NCBI RefSeq assembly: GCF_018860245.1
Contig: NZ_JAHKPD010000007.1
Coordinates: 141,892-205,891 of the forward strand
Source of the DNA: Pseudotamlana agarivorans
GTDB taxonomy: Bacteria; Bacteroidota; Bacteroidia; Flavobacteriales; Flavobacteriaceae
Direction: 5' to 3'
DNA: 64,000 bases
A model generated the notes under the pieces. That model was not told where the DNA came from, did no database searches, and saw nothing but the letters and a program-made list of their open reading frames with translations. Below are positions 9,691 to 36,999 of the stretch, one piece after another. The position numbers were made by a program, and so were the translations under genes. Position 1 is the first letter of the stretch. Every line of letters begins with the position of its first letter.

Positions 9691-9721
9691 TTGTTTTATT
9701 AACTTATTATTATGACTTTTG
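9691..9721 (+). promoter_or_regulatory. Predicted susC promoter
   Basis: TTG at 9691-9693, 20 bp, then GACTTTTG at 9714-9721 (7 of 8 positions of TAnnTTTG). The -7 box overlaps the upstream in-frame ATG at 9712, which argues that translation really starts at the ATG at 9748. Confidence 0.5.
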
Positions 9722-9747
9722 GCGTGACTAATTCAAATAATTATAAA

Positions 9748-12700
9748 ATGAAAACAAAGTTTAGTGGAATTCTAACGCTATTACTAGTGTTAGTTGTGCA
9801 ACTTACGTTTGCACAAGAAAAGACAATTTCAGGTACGGTTACAGATGATACTGGCCTACCGCTTCCTGGAACGACAGTCTTAGTAAAAGGTACAGCAAAT
9901 GGTACCTCAACAGATTTCGATGGTAATTATTCGATTCTTGCAGAAACAGGAGATGTTCTTGTTTTTAGTTTTGTTGGTTACACGACAAAAGACGTTACAG
10001 TTTCTAAAGAAACCATTAACGTGGTATTAAAAGAAGATGCTGAATCATTAGACGAAGTAGTTGTGACTGCAATGGGGATTTCAAAAGAAAGAAAAGCCGT
10101 TGGTTCTTCTGTTCAATCTTTTGACAACACAGAATTAACTAGTGCTAAAGTAGTAAATACTATGGATGCATTACAAGGTAAAACTTCTGGTGTTGACATT
10201 ACTGCAGCGCCTTCACCTGGTTCTACTCAGAACGTAATCATTCGTGGAGCATCTTCTTTCGGGAACAATCAACCATTATATATTGTAGATGGTGTTCCAT
10301 TAACAAATGATCAGAATAGATCTGGAGATAACTTAAACTCACAAGTTGATTTTGGTTCTGGTATTAACGCCATTAACCCGAATGACATTGAAACACTTAC
10401 TGTACTTAAAGGAGCATCTGCAACGGCCATTTATGGTTCGCGTGCTGCTAACGGTGTTATCATGATTACAACTAAAAGTGGTAAAGAAGGCGTGCTACAA
10501 GTAAACTTCAATAACTCTCTCTCTCTTTCAAGAGTTGGAGTATTACCTGAAAGACAAACTCAATTCGGACAAGGATGGAGTGGAGATAGAGCGCTAGATG
10601 AAAATGGAAACTGGGGATCTGCATATGATGGTAAGGACCGTGTATGGGGTAACGTTGTTGATAACAGTCAACAAATAAAACCTTACGTTTATTTAGAAGA
10701 TAACGTAAGAGATTTTTATGACTACGGAAAAAACATTGCGAATTCATTATCATTATCTGGTGGTTCTGATATCACAAAATATTACTTCTCTGTGTCTCAA
10801 AACTCAGTTGATGGTGTTGTACCAGAAGACAAGGATACTTATGAGAGATTAACATTATCTACTAGAGGATCTCACAAATATAAAAACTTACTTATTAGTT
10901 CATCTATTAACTACAGTAACGAGATCACTCATGCTGTACCTACTGGACAAGGAACTTCTTTATTAAGATCTTTATACGAAATTCCTAACGATGTTTCAAT
11001 TGTAGATCATAAAGATTACAATAACAAATTCAATAACTTAGACAACTACTTTACACCTTACGGTGTTAACCCATACTTTATTTTAGATAATGATGGAGCA
11101 GAACAAGTTAAAAATAAGTTTTTCGGTAAATTTCAATTGGATTATGATCTTTTAGATAACCTTAAATTAACTTACCGTTTTGGTGGTGATATTGAAAACA
11201 CAATCGAACAAACACATACTGGAATTATTAGTTTCAGCGAGGGGGCTATTAACGCAGGATCTAGTACAGCTAATCCAGGTTCATATAGAGAAGAGCGTAT
11301 TCAAAGAGTTCAAATGAATCACGACTTTACTGCTAGTTATAATACAACAATTGGAGAAGACACTTCAATTCATGGTTTGGCTGGTTTTAATGCCAACGAA
11401 AGAAAATGGTCTTCATTATACGGAGAAATTTCTTCTATTGATGTGCCAGGTTTTTACAACCTTTCAAACAGTTTAACACCAGCCACTTCTGGTCAAGATC
11501 ATTCTCAAAGAAGACTGTTAGGTGCTTATATTAGTGCAGATGTTAGTTATAAAGATTATTTCTTCTTAAACATGACAGCAAGAAATGACTGGTCTTCTAC
11601 ACTACCTCTTGAGAATAACTCATTCATGTATGGAGGTGTGAACGCCAGTTTTATTATTACTGATTTCTTAAAATCACACGATGTTAACACAGGTGTTTTT
11701 GATTTTACAAAATTAAGAGTTGCCTACGGTAGTACTGGTAATGATGCCGGAGTATACCAAGTGTATAACAGATTTGTACCAGGATATTCAACTAACCCAG
11801 GATTTCCAAACGTAGACGATTTAACATTCCCATTAGGTGGTGTAAATTCATACAGTAACTCTAATGTATTAGGGAATTCAGATCTTAAGCCTGAATTAAC
11901 AGGAGAGTTTGAGGTTGGTATTGAGAATAGAATGTTTAATAATCGTTTTGGTTTTGAAGTTTCTTATTACAACAGGTTAACAAAAGGTTTAATTGCAACA
12001 TTACCTATTGATCCATCAAGTGGATACACACAAATAGCTTCTAACTTAGGTGATGTTAGAAATGCAGGTGTAGAGATTAGTGTTAATGTGAAACCTATTA
12101 GAACTGATGATTTCCAATGGGACATCAACTGGAACTACACTCAAAACAAAAATACCGTTGAAAGTTTAGACGTAGGAGAAGTATTTATCTCAGGATTTGG
12201 TACTGGTGGTGTATATGCTATTGAAGGTATGCCATTAGGACAGTTCAAGTTTGCTACTGCTAAAAAAGTGATGCACAATGGTGTTGAATCTACAGTAGTA
12301 GATGGTAGTGGTAACCCTCAACAAACAACAGATCAAGAGTTATTAGGAAAAGACATCAACGAAAAGTATAGAATGGGTTTAACAAATACCTTGAGATATA
12401 AAAACCTTTCGTTAGCTGCAACTTTTGATTTTAGATATGGCGGTTATATGTACTCTGGTACTAAAGATTACATGCACTGGACAGGAAGTTCTCCAGAAAG
12501 TGTTATAAATGATAGAAACGCTTTTATCATACCAAATTCGGTAGTAGAAAATAGTGATGGATCATTTTCAGAAAACTCAACTCCGGTTGATCCAACAGCT
12601 TTACATACCTTCTATAGTAATGGAGGATTTGAAGGCGATGGATACGCTGTTATTGACAAGTCTTTCTTAAAACTAAGAAATGTTACTTTGGCCTATGAGA

Positions 12701-12909
12701 TGCCACAAACGCTTTGTAGCAAATTAAAATTAAAAAGCATCGTAATTTCGGCAGTAGCAAGTAACTTCCTTTTATGGACTCCAGCTGAGAACCCTTATAT
12801 CGATCCTGAAAACACTACTTTCGGAACTGATATTAGTGCTAAGTTCGGTGAATTCATGGGTAACCCAAGTCAAGAAACATTTGCTTTAGGTCTAAATATT
12901 AACTTATAA
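9748..12909 (+). CDS. SusC/RagA-family TonB-linked outer membrane transporter
   Basis: About 1053 residues from the ATG at 9748, which gives a clean signal peptide ending LTFAQ. Next comes a carboxypeptidase-regulatory-like domain (SGTVTDDTGLPLPGTTVLVKG), the SusC linker (LDEVVVTAMGISKE), then the TonB plug with YIVDGVPLT, ATAIYGSRAANG and VIMITTKSG, and a C-terminal beta barrel of about 800 residues. SusC proteins import oligomeric nutrients across the outer membrane with a SusD lid. The next gene, 10 bp away, is the SusD partner. No glycoside hydrolase is nearby, so the substrate cannot be read from context; peptides are as likely as glycans. Confidence 0.93.
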   Translation: MKTKFSGILTLLLVLVVQLTFAQEKTISGTVTDDTGLPLPGTTVLVKGTANGTSTDFDGNYSILAETGDVLVFSFVGYTTKDVTVSKETINVVLKEDAESLDEVVVTAMGISKERKAVGSSVQSFDNTELTSAKVVNTMDALQGKTSGVDITAAPSPGSTQNVIIRGASSFGNNQPLYIVDGVPLTNDQNRSGDNLNSQVDFGSGINAINPNDIETLTVLKGASATAIYGSRAANGVIMITTKSGKEGVLQVNFNNSLSLSRVGVLPERQTQFGQGWSGDRALDENGNWGSAYDGKDRVWGNVVDNSQQIKPYVYLEDNVRDFYDYGKNIANSLSLSGGSDITKYYFSVSQNSVDGVVPEDKDTYERLTLSTRGSHKYKNLLISSSINYSNEITHAVPTGQGTSLLRSLYEIPNDVSIVDHKDYNNKFNNLDNYFTPYGVNPYFILDNDGAEQVKNKFFGKFQLDYDLLDNLKLTYRFGGDIENTIEQTHTGIISFSEGAINAGSSTANPGSYREERIQRVQMNHDFTASYNTTIGEDTSIHGLAGFNANERKWSSLYGEISSIDVPGFYNLSNSLTPATSGQDHSQRRLLGAYISADVSYKDYFFLNMTARNDWSSTLPLENNSFMYGGVNASFIITDFLKSHDVNTGVFDFTKLRVAYGSTGNDAGVYQVYNRFVPGYSTNPGFPNVDDLTFPLGGVNSYSNSNVLGNSDLKPELTGEFEVGIENRMFNNRFGFEVSYYNRLTKGLIATLPIDPSSGYTQIASNLGDVRNAGVEISVNVKPIRTDDFQWDINWNYTQNKNTVESLDVGEVFISGFGTGGVYAIEGMPLGQFKFATAKKVMHNGVESTVVDGSGNPQQTTDQELLGKDINEKYRMGLTNTLRYKNLSLAATFDFRYGGYMYSGTKDYMHWTGSSPESVINDRNAFIIPNSVVENSDGSFSENSTPVDPTALHTFYSNGGFEGDGYAVIDKSFLKLRNVTLAYEMPQTLCSKLKLKSIVISAVASNFLLWTPAENPYIDPENTTFGTDISAKFGEFMGNPSQETFALGLNINL

Positions 12910-12919
12910 AAAAGTAATA

Positions 12920-14437
12920 ATGAAAAAATATATATATAAAATAGCATTATTTGCATTAGTAACTACAGCTTGGAATTGCGATAGTTATCTAGATGTAAAC
13001 CATGATCCAGATGTATTGGAAGAAACCGATTCACCTGAAATCATCCTACCTTCTGCACAAGCCAGTTTAGGTAACAATTTAATGGGTTGGGACTTTGGTT
13101 TTGCTGGAGGATTCTGGAACGAATACTGGACTCAAACTTATACGGCTTCTCAGTTCAAAACATTATGTGAATATGAAGAAACAGGTTTTAGCAACCAATA
13201 CACTGGTTTAACAGCAGGAACTTTAAGTGATTTAGATATGATTAAAAAATTATCTGGATCGGCCGATAACCAAGGGTACTATTATATTGCCGAAGCACTT
13301 TCAATTTATACTTGGCAAGTGATGACCGATATTTGGGGAGATATTCCTTATTCGGAAGCATTACAAGGTAACACTATTAAATCTCCAGTATTTGATCCAG
13401 CAGAAAGTATTTATGCCGATTTGATAAATAGAGTTGATGATTTATTAGCAATTGATAACTCAACATTTTCTATTAGAAGTCAATATGATTTTATCTATGA
13501 GGGAGATATGGATGCTTGGAAGAAATTTGTAGCATCTTTAAAGTTAAAATTAATGTTACGTCAATCTGAAACAACAGGTTACAACAACGGTCAAGTACTT
13601 GCTTTTGTTAACAGTAACAGTTTTTTAACAAGCTCAGCTAAAATTGCTGGTAGCTACTGGGATGACAGTGCTGAAGGGAAAAGACACCCAATGAGAGAGT
13701 ACGAAGCAGGCGGTGCAAGTTACTTATCTACAAATGTTATCGGTTGTAAAACGTTTGTTGATTATTTAAATGTAAATTCTGACCCTAGACTTGATGCGTT
13801 ATTTACCGCTCCAAGCTCAGGACATCAAGGTGCTTTCTTTGGTGATTTTGATTCTAAAGCAGATTCTAATTCTAATGGAACCACTGATGACCAAGAAGAC
13901 TATAGCGAACCTATTTTCAAGGGTGATATGGACTTAATGATTATGAGTGACTGGGAAGTATACTTCTATTTAGCTGAAGTGTACACAAGAGCTTCAGACA
14001 TGACAAACGCCAAAGCATATTATGATATGGCTGTTGAAGCTTCTTTAGCTCAAAACGATATCACAGATAATTCAATTTTAACTTCTGGTTATGCTACATG
14101 GACAAATGGTTCTATTGAAGATGGTATCAAAATGATTGCTATGCAGAAATGGGTAGCCAATGCGAACTACCAACACATTGAGTCATTCTTAGAGCGCAAC
14201 AGAACTAAATACCCTTCTGTAAGCGAAATGGATATTAAAGCAGATAGACAAAATGCCTTTTTAAATTTCCCTGTTGGACAGTTAACCATATCAGTTAACG
14301 GAAGAGATAAAACTAATGGTTTCTTACCTGCAGCTCCTGTATACCCAAGTAACGTATTAAATAGTAACGTTAATTCTCCAGGTCAAAAAGTAAATCTATT
14401 AGAGAAAATTTGGTGGAATAAAAAAGCTGGTAAATAA
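12920..14437 (+). CDS. SusD/RagB-family nutrient-binding lipoprotein
   Basis: A 505-residue surface lipoprotein. The hydrophobic leader ends in TTAWNC, with the acceptor Cys at residue 20; the -1 residue Asn is unusual for a lipobox, although Cys-Asp follows. The sequence resembles the SusD-like_2 branch (DYLDVN-type start SYLDVNHDPD, TYTASQFK, WQVMTDIWGDIPYSEAL, VYFYLAEVYTRA), helical with TPR-like repeats. SusD caps the SusC barrel and binds the substrate. It is co-directional with susC (10-bp gap) and followed 17 bp later by a lipoprotein gene, so these form one operon. Confidence 0.88.
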   Translation: MKKYIYKIALFALVTTAWNCDSYLDVNHDPDVLEETDSPEIILPSAQASLGNNLMGWDFGFAGGFWNEYWTQTYTASQFKTLCEYEETGFSNQYTGLTAGTLSDLDMIKKLSGSADNQGYYYIAEALSIYTWQVMTDIWGDIPYSEALQGNTIKSPVFDPAESIYADLINRVDDLLAIDNSTFSIRSQYDFIYEGDMDAWKKFVASLKLKLMLRQSETTGYNNGQVLAFVNSNSFLTSSAKIAGSYWDDSAEGKRHPMREYEAGGASYLSTNVIGCKTFVDYLNVNSDPRLDALFTAPSSGHQGAFFGDFDSKADSNSNGTTDDQEDYSEPIFKGDMDLMIMSDWEVYFYLAEVYTRASDMTNAKAYYDMAVEASLAQNDITDNSILTSGYATWTNGSIEDGIKMIAMQKWVANANYQHIESFLERNRTKYPSVSEMDIKADRQNAFLNFPVGQLTISVNGRDKTNGFLPAAPVYPSNVLNSNVNSPGQKVNLLEKIWWNKKAGK

Positions 14438-28589: not shown

Positions 28590-31500
28590 ATGAGGCCTAC
28601 GCTATTATTAATATGTATTCTTTTTTTCTCAAATCTTACCAATGCACAGAATCCTTACTCCGATTTATGGGAGAAAGTAGAAACTTTTGAAGTTCAAGGC
28701 TTACCAAAATCGGCATTAAAAACCTTGAAATCAATTGAAAAAAAAGCTAAACGTGCCGAAAACCATGAACAAATCATAAAAGTCATGCTTTTTAAGAGTA
28801 AGTTCAATCTTATCTTAGAAGAAGATGCCATACTGAATATTATCAATGATTTTAAGTCTGAAATTGATAAAAATGAGCGTCCTACTAAAAATGTTCTAGA
28901 AAATATTTTAGCTCATTTATACTGGCAATATTTTAACAAAAACAAAGATCAATTTTACAGTAGAACAAAAACTTCAGAAAAAGTAAACCTGGAAGATTTT
29001 AGAACTTGGGACCTCCAAACCCTTTTCAATGAAATTCATTTGCTTTACCAAAAATCTCTAAAAAATGACGATTTACTAAAGCAAGAACAGCTAGAAAATT
29101 ATAGCGCACTAATAAAAAAACAAGGTAACTCTAGTAAATTACGACCAACATTATTCGATTTTTTAAGTCATAATGCCTTAGAGTTTTACGAAACCAACGA
29201 GACACATATTACCCAACCCGCTTATAAATTTGTGTTGGACGCCCCAGAATATCTAGCCAATGCCGAACAGTTTTCTACCTTACAAATAGCATCAAAAGAC
29301 AGTACTTCCCTGCAATTAAACGCACTTAAAATATACAAAGCGCTTATAAGATTCCATTTAAAAAATAAAAATTATGACGCGCTTACCAATGTTGACATCG
29401 CCCGTATTAAGTTTGTTTACAACCATGCTACTTTTAATGATAAAGAAAAATTAAAGATAGAAGCTCTAAAAAAAGCAAGTAAAAACATTGAAAACCACGA
29501 AAGTTCTGGTTTATATGATTTTGAAATCGCTTCCACTTATTATGAGCAGAGCAAAACTTACAGTCCGAAAACCAATAAAGACAACCGCTGGAAAGCCAAG
29601 GAAGCCGTAACACTTTGCGATCAAGTTATTAAAACACACCCAAAAAGCAGTGCCGCCGAAAAGTGTGAAATTTTAAAAGCGCAGATTGAAGATTTAAGCC
29701 TTCAAATTACTACCGAAAAGTATCTCCCCATTGCTAAGGCATCTCGATTACTGATCACTTATAAAAACCTAGATTCTTTACAGTTTTATATTTACAAACT
29801 TACCGAAGAACAGGTTGAAACCTACGATGATCTATATAGAAAAGACCAAAAGCTATCTTTTTTAGAAGCATTAATACCAACCGAATCCTGGGTAAGCAAA
29901 CTAAGGAATGAGCATGATTATCAAACCCACACTACAGAAGTTGTGCTTCCTAAATTAAACAACGGAAAGTATTTAGTACTTGCTAAGGTTAAAAAAGACG
30001 AAGATACATTCGCTTTTGCACACATTCAAGTGACCGATTTTGCCTTGATTGAAACTCAAACGACCGCGTTTAAACTATTCCAAATTATAAATAGAAATAA
30101 CGGTAACCCTATTAGAAACGCACAGGCTGAATTATCATACTTTCCACAAAACTCCAGAACCCGAGAAACCAAAACATTTGAGACCAATAATTTAGGTCAG
30201 TTTAAAATGGAAAAAGGTGAAGACTGGTACAGAAACATTAAATTAAAAGTAACAAAAGGCAAAGAAATCGCCTATTTTGGAGACTACTACCTCAACAAAA
30301 GCTATAAACAACAAAACAATAACCCAACAAAATACAAGTCTTTTATATTCACAGACCGCAGTATTTATAGGCCAGGACAAACGGTTTACTTTAAGGCTAT
30401 TGCGATGCAAGTTACAGCAGGTAAATCACAAGTTTTAGCAAGTAGACCTATACTAGCTACGTTGCACAATGTGAATAATGAAAAAGTAACGCAATTGGAG
30501 CTTAAAACCAATGATTTCGGATCTGTTTCTGGGGAATTCATTCTGCCTAACAACGGCCTTACTGGGCGTTTTAGCATATCGATTAACGACAACGATGGAC
30601 ATATAAATTTATTTGCATCACAAAATTTTTCAGTTGAAGAATACAAGCGTCCGAAATTTGAAACGCAATTTGAAACCATTACCGAAACCTTTCGTGTTAA
30701 TGATTCTATAACCGTAAAAGGAAAAGCGCAATCTTTTTCAGGCAGTAACATTACAGATGCTAAAGTCGTTTACCGCGTAAAACGTAAAGTGGAATACCCA
30801 CATTGGTCTTTTGGTTATCGCCCTTTTGCTTACAACTCCGGACAGGAAATTACCCATGGTAAAACAAAAACTGATGCTTCTGGGAATTTTGAAATTATCT
30901 TTAAAGCGATTCCAGATGAAAGTATCGACAAAACCACTCGCCCTATTTTTAAGTACGAAGTTATTGCCGATGTTACCGATATAAACGGCGAAACTCATAG
31001 TGAAACTACGACGATTAATGTAGGCTACCATGCTTTAACTGCCAATATAAATATTGAAAACGCTATTGATAAATCGGCCAAGAATCAGATATTAACCATC
31101 GAGACAAAAAACTTAAATGGTGCTTTTGTCCCTACAAAAGGCCATATTAAAATTTATAAACTTAAAGCACCCAATTCCGTTTTAAGAGTACGCCCTTGGA
31201 GTGCTCCAGATTATCAAGAATTAACAAAGCATGACTTTAAAGCCTTGTTTCCGTATGAAGCCTTTAAGGATGAAAACAACCCAGATTCTTGGGAGAACGG
31301 TAACTTGGTTTTAGAGAAGCATTTTAATACGGAAGACTCCAAAACATTAGACTTAGGGCAATTAAGCCACTGGCAATCTGGACAGTATACCATCACCTTA
31401 GAATCCAAAGACAAATTTGGTCAATTGGTGAAGGATGAAGTTAAAACGACGCTCTACAGTGATTCAGACAAAACATTAGCCGACAATGAACTTTTCAGTA

Positions 31501-34500
31501 TAACCACTAACAAAACAGATTATAACATCAACGAATCTGCTTATATCACTTTAGGGACTTCAGCAGAAAATGTTTCGGTAACAGTAACTATTGAGAAGAA
31601 TAGAAAATTCGTAAAAACGGAAATTATAAAACTAAGTAACAATAAAAAGACCATCGCAATTCCTATCACCAAAAACGATGTTGGTGGTTTTGCAGTACAC
31701 TATAGTTTTGCCGCATATAATAGTTACCAATCTGGCACAAAATTAATTGCTGTGCCACACCCAAGCACAAATTTAGAAATTGAAACCTCCACTTTTAGAG
31801 ATAAAATTCAACCCGGTAGCGAAGAAACATGGCAGTTTAAAATTAAAGGGCCAAATGGAGAAAAAGTAAGCACTGAATTACTGGCTAGCATGTACGATGC
31901 TTCATTAGATCTTTTCAAATCACATACCTGGAAATTCAACCCTATAAATAAACCCACTTATTATACTAGAAGTTACAGCAACGCGTATAATAACTTTAGA
32001 ACTCAAGATTTTACCGCTTATAACCCAAATCATCAATTCAATTATCCTGAGCAAGAATACGACCAATTTAACTGGTATGGTTTTGATATGAATAACGACA
32101 ACATCCATAAACGTTATTTAAATCAATTACGCTCTAAACAAGAATCAAAATATAGCAACTCTGTAAAAAAAGGCTTCGTTTCGGGTACTGTTTACGACGA
32201 AACTGGAGCACCTATCCCTGCCGTAACCATTATTATAAAAGGCACTACTGAAGGTACAATGACTAATTTTGACGGTAATTTTTCCATTGAAGCAGAACAA
32301 GGAGACATACTAGAAATAAGTTACATCGGTTTTGATTCGCAAGACATTCTGATAGGAAACAAAAACTTTTTTCACGCGTATTTAACGGCAAACAACAGCC
32401 ATCTTAACGAGGTAACGGTTATTGGTCTAGCAGCTGCTCCCAGCGCAGTAACCAACCTTGCTAGCGCCACGCAGAAAATAGAAGTGGAAGATACCGAATC
32501 GGATGACACTGCTACAGGTTCAGTAACTATACGAGGAAATTCTAGTATTCTAGGAAATAACAAAGCATTATATATTGTTGATGGTAAAATTACTGAAGAC
32601 ATTTCAGATATAAGCCCAGACGACATTTTGTCTATGAATGTTTTAAAAGATTCTGCCGCTACCGCCATTTATGGTAGTAAAGCAAAAAATGGCGTTGTAA
32701 TCATCACTACTAAAAACGCATTGAATGCCATTTCTCTAGTTGAAGTTAGAAAAAACTTAAAGGAAACGGCTTTTTTCTTTCCGCAGTTAAAAACCGATGA
32801 AAATGGCAACATTAGTTTCAGTTTTAATACACCAGAAGCTTTAACGCAATGGAAATTGCAATTATTAGCACATACCAAATCACTAGAAAGCGCTACTAAA
32901 ACCTTAACAACGGTCACTCAAAAAGAGTTGATGGTGACTCCAAATGCGCCTCGTTTTTTACGTGAGGGCGATCGTATTAACATCAGTTCTAAAATTGCTA
33001 ACCTCACGAAAAAAACAATTTCGGGTGATGCGATGTTACTACTAACCGATGCCATTTCTGGGAAAGACATAAACATTAGCCTTGGTAATGCTGTAAACAA
33101 CAAACCATTTTCGGTTAATGCACATGGCAACACAGAGGTTTCATGGCAATTAAATATCCCTGAGAATATACAAGCTGTACAATATAAAGTACTTGCTAAA
33201 TCGGAAACTTTTAGTGATGGCGAACAAAACACCTTACCAGTTTTATCGAATCGCATGTTGGTTACAGAAAGCTTACCGATGTGGATTAAAAGTAACGAAA
33301 CAAAAACCTTCACCTTAGACAAACTCAAGAACAACGCTTCAACAAGCCTTACAAACCATAAGTTAACTTTAGAAGTAACTTCCACCCCTGCTTGGTATGC
33401 GGTTCAAGCTTTACCTTATTTAATGGAATACCCTTATGAGTGTAATGAGCAAACGTTCAGTAAATATTACGCAAATGCTTTAGCGCAGCATATTGTACAG
33501 TCGAATCCGAAAATTGAAGCCGTTTTTAATCAGTGGAAATCACAAGATGTTTTAATTTCTAACCTAGAAAATAACGATGAATTAAAGTCAATCTTAATTC
33601 AAGAAACCCCTTGGTTACGTGATGCACAAAGTGAAACAGAACAGAAAAAACGCATCGCCTTACTATTCGATTTAAATAAAATGGATAGCGAATTACAAAC
33701 CGCTATTAATAAAATAAAATCGAACCAACTCCATTCTGGTGCCTGGCCTTGGTTTAATGGGGGAAGAGCAAACCGCTATATCACGCAGCATATTATTTCA
33801 GGTTTTGGGCGTTTAAAAAAGCTTCAAATTAATTCTGAAAGCACTTCTCAAATGGTTAAAAATGCCATTAAATATCTCGATGAGCAATTTATTGAGGAAT
33901 ATGAAACATTAAAAAAACACAATGAAAAAATAGATTTAAGCAACGATCATTTAAGCGCGACACAACTGCATTATCTATACATGCGAAGCTTCTTCCCTGA
34001 AATTGAAAAATCTAATGACGTTGAAAATACCAGCAAATATTACCAAATACAAATTGAAAACTACTGGCTAAAACGACCTTTATATTCTAAAGGCTTAATG
34101 GCTTTAATTTCTTTTAGAAATAACGATTTAAAAACAGCCAATGCGATATTAGAATCACTAAAGGAAACCAGCATCACTTCAGAAGCATTGGGCATGTATT
34201 GGAAAGAAAACACAAATTCATGGTTTTGGTACCAAGCCCCTATTGAAACCCAAGCGCTTTTAATTGAAGCTTTTTCAGAAATTAAAAAAGACATCCAAAC
34301 CATTGATAACTTAAAAATCTGGCTTATTAAAAACAAGCAAACAAATCACTGGAAAACAACGAAAGCAACAACTAATGCGGTTTATGCTTTATTACTTGAA
34401 GGTAGCGATTGGTTAAGCGTTACTGATAGGGTTGATGTAACAGTAGGAAATAAAACTATTGAACCTGCTAAATTAGATAATGTAAAAACGGAAGCTGGAA

Positions 34501-35069
34501 CAGGTTATTATAAAACCTCTTGGACTGCCACTGAAATCAACCCTGCAATGAGCGAAGTAACCCTTACTAAAAAAGGAGACGGCATCGCTTGGGGGAGCTT
34601 GTATTGGCAATATTTTGAGGATTTAGATAAAATTACAACTGCAGAAACACCGCTGAGTATTAAGAAAAAATTATTCGTTAAACATGATACAGATTTGGGT
34701 GAAGAAATTACCGAAATAACACCTAACACCACCCTTAAAGTTGGTGATCTTGTTCGCGTACGCATCGAATTACAAAGTGATCGCGACATGGAATTCCTTC
34801 ATATGAAAGATATGCGTGCTGCTGGTTTAGAACCTATAAACGTTATTTCAACTTATAAATGGCAAGATGGTTTAGGCTATTATGAAAGTACCAAAGACGC
34901 CAGCACCAATTTCTTTATTGACCGCTTACCAAAAGGTATTTATGTTTTTGAATACGATTTAAGAGTTAATAATGCTGGCGACATGAGTAATGGTATTACA
35001 ACCCTACAAAGTATGTATGCTCCTGAATTTAGTAGCCATAGTGAAGGCATTCGAATTAAAACGGAATAA
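28590..35069 (+). CDS. Giant alpha-2-macroglobulin-family protein with an inserted SusC-like regulatory and plug module
   Basis: A 2159-residue exported protein (signal MRPTLLLICILFFSNLTNAQ). The N-terminal helical region runs to about 370. Macroglobulin domains follow, with an MG2-type stretch FTDRSIYRPGQTVYFKA (about 588-604) and VEEYKRPKFE. A bait-region-type domain comes next (ELLASMYDASLDLFKS, about 1095-1110). Residues about 1193-1377 are foreign to the family: a carboxypeptidase-regulatory-like domain (SGTVYDETGAPIPAV) and a TonB plug (YIVDGKI from 1328, ATAIYGSKAKNG from 1357, VVIITTK), with no barrel. The A2M domain then resumes (VRKNLKETAFFFPQLKTD). The thioester motif CNEQ is at 1618-1621. 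The known role of the family is covalent trapping of attacking proteases. First gene of a three-gene unit. Confidence 0.88.
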   Translation: MRPTLLLICILFFSNLTNAQNPYSDLWEKVETFEVQGLPKSALKTLKSIEKKAKRAENHEQIIKVMLFKSKFNLILEEDAILNIINDFKSEIDKNERPTKNVLENILAHLYWQYFNKNKDQFYSRTKTSEKVNLEDFRTWDLQTLFNEIHLLYQKSLKNDDLLKQEQLENYSALIKKQGNSSKLRPTLFDFLSHNALEFYETNETHITQPAYKFVLDAPEYLANAEQFSTLQIASKDSTSLQLNALKIYKALIRFHLKNKNYDALTNVDIARIKFVYNHATFNDKEKLKIEALKKASKNIENHESSGLYDFEIASTYYEQSKTYSPKTNKDNRWKAKEAVTLCDQVIKTHPKSSAAEKCEILKAQIEDLSLQITTEKYLPIAKASRLLITYKNLDSLQFYIYKLTEEQVETYDDLYRKDQKLSFLEALIPTESWVSKLRNEHDYQTHTTEVVLPKLNNGKYLVLAKVKKDEDTFAFAHIQVTDFALIETQTTAFKLFQIINRNNGNPIRNAQAELSYFPQNSRTRETKTFETNNLGQFKMEKGEDWYRNIKLKVTKGKEIAYFGDYYLNKSYKQQNNNPTKYKSFIFTDRSIYRPGQTVYFKAIAMQVTAGKSQVLASRPILATLHNVNNEKVTQLELKTNDFGSVSGEFILPNNGLTGRFSISINDNDGHINLFASQNFSVEEYKRPKFETQFETITETFRVNDSITVKGKAQSFSGSNITDAKVVYRVKRKVEYPHWSFGYRPFAYNSGQEITHGKTKTDASGNFEIIFKAIPDESIDKTTRPIFKYEVIADVTDINGETHSETTTINVGYHALTANINIENAIDKSAKNQILTIETKNLNGAFVPTKGHIKIYKLKAPNSVLRVRPWSAPDYQELTKHDFKALFPYEAFKDENNPDSWENGNLVLEKHFNTEDSKTLDLGQLSHWQSGQYTITLESKDKFGQLVKDEVKTTLYSDSDKTLADNELFSITTNKTDYNINESAYITLGTSAENVSVTVTIEKNRKFVKTEIIKLSNNKKTIAIPITKNDVGGFAVHYSFAAYNSYQSGTKLIAVPHPSTNLEIETSTFRDKIQPGSEETWQFKIKGPNGEKVSTELLASMYDASLDLFKSHTWKFNPINKPTYYTRSYSNAYNNFRTQDFTAYNPNHQFNYPEQEYDQFNWYGFDMNNDNIHKRYLNQLRSKQESKYSNSVKKGFVSGTVYDETGAPIPAVTIIIKGTTEGTMTNFDGNFSIEAEQGDILEISYIGFDSQDILIGNKNFFHAYLTANNSHLNEVTVIGLAAAPSAVTNLASATQKIEVEDTESDDTATGSVTIRGNSSILGNNKALYIVDGKITEDISDISPDDILSMNVLKDSAATAIYGSKAKNGVVIITTKNALNAISLVEVRKNLKETAFFFPQLKTDENGNISFSFNTPEALTQWKLQLLAHTKSLESATKTLTTVTQKELMVTPNAPRFLREGDRINISSKIANLTKKTISGDAMLLLTDAISGKDINISLGNAVNNKPFSVNAHGNTEVSWQLNIPENIQAVQYKVLAKSETFSDGEQNTLPVLSNRMLVTESLPMWIKSNETKTFTLDKLKNNASTSLTNHKLTLEVTSTPAWYAVQALPYLMEYPYECNEQTFSKYYANALAQHIVQSNPKIEAVFNQWKSQDVLISNLENNDELKSILIQETPWLRDAQSETEQKKRIALLFDLNKMDSELQTAINKIKSNQLHSGAWPWFNGGRANRYITQHIISGFGRLKKLQINSESTSQMVKNAIKYLDEQFIEEYETLKKHNEKIDLSNDHLSATQLHYLYMRSFFPEIEKSNDVENTSKYYQIQIENYWLKRPLYSKGLMALISFRNNDLKTANAILESLKETSITSEALGMYWKENTNSWFWYQAPIETQALLIEAFSEIKKDIQTIDNLKIWLIKNKQTNHWKTTKATTNAVYALLLEGSDWLSVTDRVDVTVGNKTIEPAKLDNVKTEAGTGYYKTSWTATEINPAMSEVTLTKKGDGIAWGSLYWQYFEDLDKITTAETPLSIKKKLFVKHDTDLGEEITEITPNTTLKVGDLVRVRIELQSDRDMEFLHMKDMRAAGLEPINVISTYKWQDGLGYYESTKDASTNFFIDRLPKGIYVFEYDLRVNNAGDMSNGITTLQSMYAPEFSSHSEGIRIKTE

Positions 35070-35077
35070 ACCATTTT

Positions 35078-35581
35078 ATGAAACTAACAAAATCTATAAA
35101 GTTTAAGATTATTGCTATACTTCTTGTAGCTTTAGGTTTTGTACAAGCATGTAAACCTGCAAAAACTGAAATTCCGATAGAAACTACTATTGCGGAAAAC
35201 CCTAAAATTATATTTTTAACTTATAGCATAAGTGAAACAGCTTCAGGAAAAAGAAGCATGCAACTTGTTAGTCAGAAAATAGTTGATGGCTACTTAAAAC
35301 CGAATAACGATCGCTCAGCACAAAACGCTGTAGACGGCGATTTAATTTGTTTACAATTTGATGGGCAATCAAATATTATAAGCCGGAGTTTAATTAAGAA
35401 TCCGCTAAAAAAATCGGTAGAATCCTTAAATGAGTCAAAAAGTTTCGAAACACAATCTATTAATTTAAATAAAACCAAATTTTCAACAAGAATAGCTTTA
35501 AGAAGTCATACTAAGCACCTTACAATTAGTAACTTTGTAAACTCAGAAAACCTGATTAGCACCAAGATAAATCAAGAATGA
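35078..35581 (+). CDS. Small lipoprotein of unknown function (A2M operon)
   Basis: A 167-residue protein with a lipoprotein leader (lipobox FVQAC, Cys25). The mature part is predicted mixed alpha/beta with no motif I recognise (IIFLTYSISETASGKRS near residues 43-59). The gene starts 8 bp after the alpha-2-macroglobulin stop codon and its TGA overlaps the ATG of the M64 peptidase gene (ATGA), so translation is likely coupled to both. By analogy with other such triplets it may help anchor or pair with the macroglobulin, which is inference only. Confidence 0.65.
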   Translation: MKLTKSIKFKIIAILLVALGFVQACKPAKTEIPIETTIAENPKIIFLTYSISETASGKRSMQLVSQKIVDGYLKPNNDRSAQNAVDGDLICLQFDGQSNIISRSLIKNPLKKSVESLNESKSFETQSINLNKTKFSTRIALRSHTKHLTISNFVNSENLISTKINQE

Positions 35582-36999
35582 AAATACACTGCTTTCTTAT
35601 TATTTCCATTTTAATGTCTACACTTGTCCTGCACGGGCAAAACTTTCCTTTGGAAGCCATTAAAATTTCTGGAAATGATGACAAAAAAATAAATATTGTT
35701 TTTTTAAGTGAAGGGTATCAGGCTAGCGAAATGGACAAATTTATCACCAATGCCACCAGTTTCACCAATACCTTTTTTAATACTAGTCCGTTTAGAGAAT
35801 ATGCCGACTACTTTAATGTGTATGCTTTAAAAATACCTTCTAATGAAAGCGGTGCCGATCATCCTGGTACCGCAACAGATTTAACCGAACCGGCACATCC
35901 AATTACCAATGTAGACACCTATTTTAACGCCACTTATGATGCTTATAACAGACACCGTTTACTGTATTATGAAATTGACGGTAATGCTGCGAATGATACA
36001 CATACCAAGATTTTCAATGTGCTTGCAGATAACTTCCCCATGTATGATCAAGGCTTTATCATTGTAAACTCATCACATTACGGCGGTAGTGGTGGTGATT
36101 TCCCTGTTACATATAATGGATATTGGGGACCTCATGTTGCCATGCATGAAATGGGACATTCCTTGTTTAACCTCATAGACGAATACTATCCAGGAGATGC
36201 TCTAGCCCGTGAAGGCATTAATATGACTCAAGAAACTGATCCAACACAGGTTCGTTGGAAAAATTGGTACCATACTAATCAAGCGGGTATTTATCAACAT
36301 TATTCGGGAGCAGTGCCCAAAGACTGGTACAAACCAAATAGTGGAACGTGCATCATGGAATCTGTCGACAAGCCGTTTTGCTCGGTATGCAAAGAAGGCA
36401 TTATAGAAAAAATTCATGAGTTAACCAATCCAATAGATAGCTACTCACCGAATAATACAACGGTTGATGCTGAAAATTTTCCAATTGAATTTGAATTGCA
36501 ACTCACAACACCAAATCCAAATACTCTAAAAAATAGATGGAATTTAAATGTCTTTGAATTTGCTACCGATATGGAAAGCGTTTTTATAACGGAAGCCGAT
36601 TTACTTAAAGGTACAAATGCCTTAACCGTGGTTGTAACAGATGACTCCAATTTATTGATGATAGATAATCACGAAAGAGTTCACGCCTATATCGTAAATT
36701 GGACGATTAACTATTCTACTTTAGGCATTACAGACATAGAAAGTGTCGTTAATAAGCTTCATATTTCTATGTTTCCTAACCCAGCAAACACGATTATTAA
36801 TTTCGAGTTTGAAGGCAACCATAACACACCGTTAACAGTAGACATTATCAGCATGGACGGCAAACGTGTAAAGTCATTCACATTATCTCACTTGAGACCT
36901 CAGCAAATAGATATCAGCCATTTAAATTCCGGAATTTATTTAACGAATTTTTACACAGGAAACACCTTAATTTCTAGCAAACGCTTAGTTAAAAATTAG
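35578..36999 (+). CDS. T9SS-secreted M64-family (IgA-type) metallopeptidase
   Basis: A 473-residue exported protein (signal ending VLHGQ). The peptidase M64 zinc motif is HEMGHSLFNLIDEYY, giving His190, Glu191, His194 and a downstream Glu202. It is preceded by the family segment KINIVFLSEGYQASEMDKF (about 37-55) and followed by SGTCIMES and a Cys pair FCSVC. The last about 80 residues form a type IX secretion sorting domain (MFPNPANTIINFEF, GIYLTNFY, KRLVKN). The founding M64 enzyme cleaves IgA, but environmental homologues have unknown targets. Third gene of the A2M operon; converges on the next gene by 8 bp. Confidence 0.88.
   Translation: MKIHCFLIISILMSTLVLHGQNFPLEAIKISGNDDKKINIVFLSEGYQASEMDKFITNATSFTNTFFNTSPFREYADYFNVYALKIPSNESGADHPGTATDLTEPAHPITNVDTYFNATYDAYNRHRLLYYEIDGNAANDTHTKIFNVLADNFPMYDQGFIIVNSSHYGGSGGDFPVTYNGYWGPHVAMHEMGHSLFNLIDEYYPGDALAREGINMTQETDPTQVRWKNWYHTNQAGIYQHYSGAVPKDWYKPNSGTCIMESVDKPFCSVCKEGIIEKIHELTNPIDSYSPNNTTVDAENFPIEFELQLTTPNPNTLKNRWNLNVFEFATDMESVFITEADLLKGTNALTVVVTDDSNLLMIDNHERVHAYIVNWTINYSTLGITDIESVVNKLHISMFPNPANTIINFEFEGNHNTPLTVDIISMDGKRVKSFTLSHLRPQQIDISHLNSGIYLTNFYTGNTLISSKRLVKN

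What the first reader, a model, noticed from the sequence alone, without database searches (positions are those of the whole stretch)
32166..32720. SusC-type regulatory and plug module inserted into an alpha-2-macroglobulin
Residues about 1193-1377 of the 2159-residue macroglobulin look like the N-terminus of a SusC transporter: a carboxypeptidase-regulatory-like domain followed by a TonB plug with YIVDG, ATAIYGS and a VVIITTK ending. The SusC gene of this same window has closely parallel motifs (YIVDG, ATAIYGS, VIMITTK). No beta barrel follows; instead the A2M domain resumes (VRKNLKETAFFFPQ). The insertion sits between the bait-type domain and the A2M domain, the segment whose cleavage triggers trapping. 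Seen: the motifs and their order. Known: both families. Inference: the module could replace or modify the bait, let the protein dock on TonB or SusD partners, or mark a distinct subfamily. I recall plug-containing macroglobulin entries in flavobacteria but cannot verify how common they are.
Basis: partly seen in the sequence, partly recalled or inferred. Interest (0 to 1): 0.75.

Follow-up and report, generated by a model that had tools for sequence, protein, structure and literature searches.

The report
Protease trap baited with transporter N-terminus
A bacterial protease-trapping protein (alpha-2-macroglobulin) carries, where its protease-sensing "bait" should be, the front end of a TonB-dependent nutrient transporter; relatives carry whole, trimmed or, in at least one genus, apparently locally copied versions, which suggests a decoy or docking device.

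Summary
Residues 1197-1375 of the 2159-aa macroglobulin are a SusC N-terminus: CarboxypepD_reg (NTE) domain, TonB box (LNEVTVIGL, 1272-1280) and a shortened plug, with no barrel. They occupy the bait site, between MYDASLD and the A2M domain. It is not an assembly error: 5 of 5 sampled same-genus genomes and a paralogue in the same genome share it.
Among 179 relatives' bait segments, SusC pieces recur at this site: full module 27, TonB box 92, nothing recognisable 59; 58 of 58 segments over 190 aa hold NTE and/or plug. A more distant A2M type carries SusC-type or differently worded plug pieces; in one genome the insert is 75% identical to that genome's own transporter-like NTE-plug protein and 47% to its A2M orthologue. 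One origin for all tested inserts is rejected.
Best reading: a transporter-mimic bait, cut by proteases that attack transporter N-termini, so springing the trap; it may also dock on TonB. Anatomy shown, function inferred. New variant of a known kind.

The parts
28590..35069 (+). alpha-2-macroglobulin, 2159 aa, with transporter-derived bait cassette
28590..28649 (+). likely cleavable signal peptide (MRPTLLLICILFFSNLTNAQ); its one cysteine lies in the hydrophobic core, not in a lipobox
   Evidence: sequence; by eye, no predictor run
30339..30602 (+). MG2 domain (584-671)
   Evidence: Pfam PF01835
31497..31841 (+). A2M_BRD domain (970-1084)
   Evidence: Pfam PF07703
31890..31910 (+). MYDASLD, last conserved MG element before the bait site
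32178..32420 (+). SusC-type NTE (CarbopepD_reg_2, 1197-1277); block pLDDT 89-95 over 1186-1265
32403..32429 (+). TonB box LNEVTVIGL (1272-1280), inside a stretch predicted disordered
   Evidence: box of a SusC in PMC7782687 (passages)
32400..32516 (+). low-confidence, probably disordered linker 1271-1309; overlaps the fast-evolving stretch 1281-1318; likely cleavage zone (inferred)
   Evidence: pLDDT under 50 throughout, 24-26 over 1276-1305; dN
32448..32696 (+). shortened TonB plug (Pfam 1287-1369; SusC signature 1345-1375); block pLDDT 75-82 over 1326-1375
32766..33023 (+). A2M domain (1393-1478), resumes after the cassette
   Evidence: Pfam PF00207
33441..33452 (+). thioester motif CNEQ (1618-1621; CxEQ)
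   Evidence: sequence; CXEQ definition in PMC4498604 (passages)
34653..35027 (+). bMG10 domain (2022-2146)
   Evidence: Pfam PF17973
35078..35581 (+). small protein, no Pfam family; 8 bases after the A2M; overlaps the next gene by 4 bases
   Evidence: matched in 12 of 81 loci
35578..36999 (+). M64 metallopeptidase with T9SS sorting tail, likely same operon
   Evidence: matched in 14 of 81 loci

Best explanation
The protein is a periplasmic thioester alpha-2-macroglobulin whose bait has been replaced by the periplasmic N-terminus of a TonB-dependent transporter (NTE, TonB box, plug). It works as a transporter-mimic bait: a protease that attacks transporter N-termini (or the loose plug of an unassembled one) meets the same sequence in the macroglobulin and cuts the disordered TonB-box-to-plug linker, and this springs the usual trap (bait retraction, thioester exposure, capture). 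NTE and plug are kept as compact modules so that a long insert does not slacken the bait. Shown: anatomy, position, recurrence across the phylum, more than one origin, and in one genus a copy closer to the genome's own NTE-plug protein than to its A2M orthologue. Inferred: periplasmic location, that proteolysis in this stretch triggers the trap, that the target is a transporter-attacking protease, and that sequence matching to the transporter is what is selected.
For: Position at the bait. Of 179 bait segments 58 exceed 190 aa, and 58 of 58 have NTE and/or plug. TonB box 92, GRVAGV 53, IRGSS 49, VVDG 34, AIYG 38 of 179, about 0.9 expected each from shuffles. One origin for SusC-type plus other-type inserts is rejected (p-AU 8e-83, 18 A2M inserts against 22 transporter or transporter-like rows). 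In G478 the insert is 75.0% identical to an NTE-plug protein of the same genome; that protein is 67.9% identical to its sister-species counterpart, and the two A2M inserts are 46.8% identical. The match covers residues 24-218 of that 1298-aa protein, from about the end of a likely signal peptide (by eye) to the end of the Plug model at 220. In G558 the insert is 40% identical to an NTE-plug protein of that genome and 26% to those of G478 and G513. Within the genus NTE and plug have dN well below dS; stretch 1281-1318 has the highest dN in 5 of 5 comparisons with the window. Model: folded NTE, low-confidence linker, part-folded plug. In human A2M, bait content sets which protease is caught and over-long baits favour the collapsed form (PMC8267569 abstract; PMC9352918 abstract and passages).
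Against: No protease is known here and nothing was assayed. Of 179 baits 59 have no recognisable transporter motif, so the trap can do without it. Five of the 179 segments have an NTE-type domain without box or plug; that domain could have another source. Own-genome matching is clear for one genome; in four genomes with SusC-type inserts (G000 for P0002, G313, G223, G007) the best-scoring own SusC-sized frame was 47-52% identical. The G513 pairing is weak (51.7% against 49.4%), and the G558 A2M is 89% identical to that of G610 over the part compared, so that capture is not recent. The G478, G513 and G558 partner proteins have NTE and Plug but no barrel model was called even at E up to 10, so 'transporter' is inferred from domains and size. 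In the pair L009/L010 the linker is not faster than the stretch before the NTE (dN 0.098 against 0.101). The element kept most when domains are lost is the TonB box, which fits docking at least as well. For SusC-type inserts alone one old capture is not rejected (p-AU 0.636, 38 against 39).
Confidence: 0.4

Rival explanations
1. TonB-docking bait. The TonB box in the bait binds the C-terminal domain of TonB, tethering this non-lipidated macroglobulin to the energised inner-membrane complex, near the transporters through which foreign proteins enter; NTE may choose the TonB paralogue. Cleavage would release it and spring the trap.
For: Among 117 baits without NTE and plug the TonB box is the element found most (44; GRVAGV 20, IRGSS 13, VVDG and AIYG 0). 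In these 44 the commonest letters stand at L 80, E 95, V 80, V 86, V 70% (SusC 97, 88, 91, 100, 88) and G 73, Y 57, G 64% (SusC 78, 75, 94): the core loses about 11 points on average, GYG about 18. The core corresponds to 81-VDEVVV-86, whose deletion or alanine replacement gave a SusC strain growth defects like loss of SusD (PMC7782687, passages). NTE occurs without a called box in 5 of 48.
Against: The box was found with a profile, so its conservation is partly selection bias, and the contrast with GYG is modest. 87 of 179 baits lack a called box. The plug is not needed for docking, yet 41 of 179 have one. Docking does not by itself explain a copy close to one particular local protein.
Confidence: 0.28
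2. Evolutionary flotsam. The bait tolerates any sequence; one old insertion of a SusC N-terminus, plus later chance recombination with abundant transporter genes, left eroding pieces without a role.
For: Human A2M works with an all Gly-Ser bait (PMC8267569 abstract; PMC9352918 passages). Presence changes at least 21-43 times on the A2M tree. SusC-type inserts are compatible with one capture. A plug motif stands before the TonB box in 17 of 91 baits.
Against: No other long insert in this set: 58 of 58 long baits are NTE and/or plug. NTE and plug look constrained within the genus (dN/dS 0.07-0.25 where dS could be computed, though most dS values are above 1 and so rough). Different transporter-like classes at the same site in distant A2Ms.
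Confidence: 0.2
3. Guard of the cell's own protease traffic: the neighbouring, T9SS-tailed M64 peptidase is the protease caught, and the cassette is merely its substrate.
For: The small gene starts 8 bases after the A2M and overlaps the M64 gene by 4; M64 matched in 14 of 81 loci and the small protein in 12 of 81.
Against: 67 of 81 loci show no M64 match (14 of the 81 loci are 14 kb or shorter, so some could be cut). Nothing ties M64 specificity to transporters.
Confidence: 0.06

Closest known systems
Bacterial type I alpha-2-macroglobulins (ECAM/YfhM of E. coli, SaA2M of Salmonella)
   Same: MG2/BRD/A2M/bMG10 architecture, CxEQ thioester motif, bait between corresponding MG elements (PMC4498604 passages).
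   Different: The ECAM bait is a largely disordered short stretch; here it is a 180-residue transporter module. ECAM is a lipoprotein; this one shows no lipobox by eye. The genome has a separate ECAM-type A2M without insert (L005:6089-11584, next to PBP1C).
SusC/RagA TonB-dependent transporters (TIGR04056, e.g. Bt1763)
   Same: NTE, TonB box, plug, SusC signature in the same order.
   Different: No beta barrel; plug shortened; about 46% identical to the window's own SusC; below the TIGR04056 cut-off.
Complement C3/C4/C5 (anaphylatoxin domain near the cleavage site)
   Same: A folded domain near the activating cleavage site of an A2M-family protein (recalled; fold hits to C3-C5).
   Different: The inserted fold is unrelated, and no release as a signal is known.
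Integrated-decoy immune receptors of plants (NLR-ID)
   Same: A receptor carrying a copy of the target it guards (recalled analogy, not tested).
   Different: Protease inhibitor, not a nucleotide-binding receptor; no attacker known.
Engineered 'tabula rasa' A2M baits (Harwood et al.)
   Same: Bait content decides which protease is trapped (PMC8267569 abstract).
   Different: Engineered in human A2M; here natural.

Membership tests
Alpha-2-macroglobulin (bacterial) | MG2, BRD, A2M and bMG10 domains in order | tested here: met
   Pfam above cut-off
Alpha-2-macroglobulin (bacterial) | CxEQ thioester motif | tested here: met
   CNEQ 1618-1621; the TED_complement model was not called in this protein but was in paralogue P0002 and in L005
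Alpha-2-macroglobulin (bacterial) | protease-cleavable disordered bait that triggers trapping | not testable with these tools
   low confidence, probably disorder, at 1271-1309; cleavage untested
ECAM-type (YfhM) A2M | lipoprotein signal | tested here: not met
   the only cysteine of MRPTLLLICILFFSNLTNAQ is in the hydrophobic core (LLIC), not a lipobox; by eye, no predictor
SusC/RagA transporter | NTE, plug and SusC signature | tested here: met
SusC/RagA transporter | beta barrel and TIGR04056 cut-off | tested here: not met
   no barrel model; 169.9 of 368.25 bits
SusC/RagA transporter | TonB box binds TonB | not testable with these tools
   sequence LNEVTVIGL resembles the box; binding untested
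Integrated decoy | domain copied from the guarded target | tested here: inconclusive
   75% to an own-genome NTE-plug protein in G478, but 46% to the window's own SusC

The most novel reading that the evidence does not exclude
Bacteroidota macroglobulins form a natural decoy-trap system: their bait site captures, and sometimes refreshes, the exact periplasmic N-terminus (mature N-terminus to plug end) of resident TonB-dependent transporters of at least two classes, presenting it, docked on TonB, as a lure for proteases that attack or enter through those transporters.
Probability: 0.27. Interest if true: 0.88.

Novelty: new variant of a known kind. Interest (0 to 1): 0.72.

Why it matters
What bacterial macroglobulins trap is poorly known (general knowledge). 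If the bait copies a transporter, the bait sequence itself names the protected target and predicts the class of protease caught, which can be tested with purified protein. It would be a bacterial case of an integrated decoy and would link the TonB system, dominant in Bacteroidota biology, to protease defence. The function of the NTE in SusC is unknown (PMC7782687, passages), so a second context for the same module is informative in itself.

Tried and rejected
Chimera or mis-assembly: rejected. Chance motif matches: rejected. Distinct subfamily marker: fits badly. One origin for all inserts: rejected for the union of SusC-type and other-type inserts, not rejected for the 38 SusC-type inserts alone (in the freer tree, 33 of the 38 grouped together with weak support). 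Recent copying from an own SusC in the window's genus: not found (insert 46% to the window's SusC, 85% to the nearest same-genus genome). For P0002, SusC-sized frames in the six genomes reach 51% over most of the module (49% for the best-scoring), A2M-sized frames 40-47%. PADLOC: no match. ECAM/SaA2M chains were not hit by sequence from the window protein or from A2, so the bait position was argued through the ECAM-type A2M of the same genome and Pfam order. Foldseek gave A2M/complement chains, with TM scores of at most 0.25 among the 50 rows listed, because the domain arrangement of the model is not fixed (pTM 0.38); used only as a fold check.

Limits. The 179 baits are not a random sample: 80 named loci are the best 80 of at least 576 confirmed, the rest come from 60 relatives and 395 phylum genomes. 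From 186 distinct frames 7 were dropped before counting (L197, L198, L200, L201, L202, L204, L205: MG7 score under 100); L083 (pattern failed) and L203 (score under 100, pattern failed) were kept. The seed profile wrongly included L202; it was used only to find SusC N-termini. Motif thresholds are the 99.5th percentile of shuffles. Of the 17 type-C loci L256-L272 (L256 is L203's place), the local profiles call NTE in 11 and plug in 3; 9 of the 17 were put to Pfam and NCBIfam, with Plug called in 4 of 9. In one search transporters of few genomes were sampled, so the G558 pairing may reflect class rather than copying. Most dS values are saturated.

Odds were changed for this: best explanation 0.42 to 0.40, docking 0.30 to 0.28, novel case 0.30 to 0.27; flotsam raised 0.18 to 0.20.

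Full report
What is there. The window holds one uninterrupted gene, 28590-35069 (+), for a 2159-residue alpha-2-macroglobulin. Pfam finds MG2, A2M_BRD, CarbopepD_reg_2, Plug, A2M and bMG10, in that order, above cut-off; NCBIfam adds the SusC/RagA family (9.3e-50, under its full-length cut-off) and the SusC signature (8.9e-14) within residues 1197-1375. A phmmer search of PDB sequences hits SusC and RagA best with this stretch. The TonB box LNEVTVIGL lies at 1272-1280, the thioester motif CNEQ at 1618-1621. The Plug model starts at position 22 of 107; compared with the window's own SusC, the first part of the plug (around ALQGKTSGV) is missing.

Where it sits. In E. coli A2M the bait is a largely disordered stretch whose cleavage untethers it and leads to thioester exposure (PMC4498604, passages). 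The insert-free ECAM-type A2M of the same genome aligns to SaA2M through this zone, and its BRD and A2M models end at 1111 and begin at 1182; in the window protein they end at 1084 and begin at 1393. So the cassette occupies the bait position rather than lying beside it.

Structure. AlphaFold2 on residues 946-1520 with 55 rows gave mean pLDDT 74, pTM 0.38. By blocks of ten, 1186-1265 (NTE) is 89-95; 1271-1309 (TonB box and linker) is under 50, 24-26 over 1276-1305; the half-plug 1326-1375 is 75-82; 1132-1165 and 1380-1393 are also under 50. The arrangement of domains is not fixed. Foldseek against PDB put A2M and complement chains on top, with low TM scores.

Not an artefact, and not alone. 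The five other genomes of the genus in the sample carry the same architecture (65-85% identity over cassette plus following MG). The same genome has a second A2M, P0002 (2185 aa), with NTE, TonB box and a fuller plug at the same site. A third A2M is of ECAM type, without insert, next to a penicillin-binding protein 1C.

Survey. I collected bait segments from 60 relatives, 80 named contigs and 395 phylum genomes, 109 of which matched the model, fetching 60 further regions. Of 186 distinct frames 7 were dropped, leaving 179. Profiles made from 39 SusC N-termini call NTE in 48, TonB box in 92 and plug in 41 of 179: all three in 27, NTE and box 16, box only 44, plug without NTE 14, NTE alone 5, none of the three 73; 59 lack every motif. 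Shuffles predict about 0.9 hits per motif, and random same-length stretches upstream gave 0 of 167 for four motifs and 1 of 167 for the fifth. Every bait segment longer than 190 residues (58 of 58) holds NTE and/or plug: no other long insert was seen in this set.

Dynamics. On a tree of the A2M part outside the cassette (178 rows) plug changes state at least 21 times, NTE 23, TonB box 43, although the locus is often the same: the window's upstream Mur-ligase and TPR genes match in 54 and 44 of 81 loci (the ligase hits murC and mpl models below both cut-offs). In 17 of 91 baits with a TonB box a plug motif lies before the box, the reverse of SusC. Within the genus, NTE and plug have dN well below dS (many dS values saturated), while 1281-1318 has the highest dN in 5 of 5 comparisons with the window (29-61% identity); in the pair L009/L010 it does not stand out. 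When both domains are gone, the TonB box is the most frequent remnant (44 of 117); its LxEVVV core is kept somewhat better than the following GYG. That core corresponds to the segment deleted or changed to alanine in a SusC, with growth defects like loss of SusD (81-VDEVVV-86; PMC7782687, passages).

A second macroglobulin type and other donors. A weak hit, L203, led to a distant A2M type (L257-L272, 29-39% identity to L203 over the searched part). Of 17 loci, 11 have an NTE-type domain and 3 (L256 = L203, L257, L258) a SusC-type plug by my profiles; others show neither. Some (L259, L261, L267, L272) have a differently worded plug start such as SIRGARPNATVYYIDG. Pfam calls Plug in L257, L258, L261 (at the cut-off) and L267, and CarboxypepD_reg-type domains in 9 of 9 tested. 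In genome G478 the L261 insert is 75.0% identical in protein and 70.0% in DNA over 188 residues to the start of a 1298-residue protein of the same genome with NTE and Plug; no barrel model or transporter structure matched the rest (weak below-cut-off hits to two receptor families), so it is transporter-like by domains and size. It is 67.9% identical to its counterpart in the sister species G513, while the two A2M inserts are 46.8% identical. The match covers residues 24-218 of the partner. In G558 the insert is 40% identical to a local NTE-plug protein and 26% to the G478 and G513 ones, but the A2M is 89% identical to that of G610 over the part compared, which matches the same local protein at 45%. 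A tree holding all 18 tested inserts as one clade is rejected (p-AU 8e-83); the G513 and G558 inserts pair with a protein of their own genome with starred support. By contrast, 38 SusC-type inserts may be one clade (p-AU 0.636), and in own-genome searches of four their best-scoring SusC-sized matches were 47-52% identical. A fragment in L144 (SLDEVIVVSERPLIEKSSTNTTRIVSSDEI) resembles stretches of roughly 800-1000-residue frames in four related genomes (best 54%), perhaps a third class.

How it most likely works. Established: bait cleavage springs A2M, bait sequence is otherwise free, bait content sets the protease caught, and longer baits favour the collapsed state (PMC8267569 abstract; PMC9352918 abstract and passages). 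Shown here: the bait is a transporter N-terminus, by more than one origin, and no other long filling was found. Inferred: the N-terminus is displayed because a protease (or another partner) recognises it; folded NTE and plug keep the effective length short and leave the linker as the cutting zone. The main rival is docking on TonB through the box; both can be true. Chance filling is less likely because nothing else long fills the site and because the modules look constrained in the window's genus.

Novelty. Searches for a prior description found none: searches returned no paper; one search returned one, on the zinc transporter ZnuD, seen in the listing only; the listings (9, 20 of 4,367 and 8 of 2,402 papers shown) showed nothing on this. 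The library is open-access only, so absence there is weak evidence.

Noticed in passing
window 35078-36999: Small protein (no Pfam family) and an M64 metallopeptidase with a T9SS sorting tail follow the A2M, overlapping each other by 4 bases; M64 matched in 14 of 81 loci and the small protein in 12 of 81.
   Followed up: partly
L004:6846-13403: Second cassette-bearing A2M (P0002) in the same genome, with a more complete plug than the window's; in five same-genus genomes the listed hits show one A2M-sized frame each, the places of the window's orthologues (lists capped).
   Followed up: partly
L038, L040, L041, L043, L045, L048, L053 and others (17 of 91 baits with a TonB box): SusC motifs in the bait stand in an order reversed relative to SusC (IRG or GRVAGV before the TonB box), 13 changes on the tree; cause unknown.
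   Followed up: partly
L326:8387-12568; L327:6464-9481; L328:8350-12183: Each NTE-plug protein that resembles a local A2M bait is followed by another very large frame; no Pfam match in the two tested (L326, L328), a weak PorZ-like C-terminus in L326's.
   Followed up: no
L005:6089-13961: ECAM-type A2M with a lipobox-like start (LSGC, by eye) followed by penicillin-binding protein 1C (TIGR02073), the E. coli yfhM-pbpC arrangement (recalled).
   Followed up: partly
L144:1234-1467, L198:2075-2425: Baits of A2Ms in a distant family of the phylum (f49) contain VIVVSERPLIEKSSTNTTRI-like or EVMVSDERPMIQRSTTNAMRI pieces that look like N-termini of another transporter class (for L144; L198 by eye).
   Followed up: partly
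window 9712-14437: SusC/SusD pair (Pfam NTE, Plug, barrel; SusD-like_2) in the same window, not a close relative of the A2M cassette (46% identity).
   Followed up: yes
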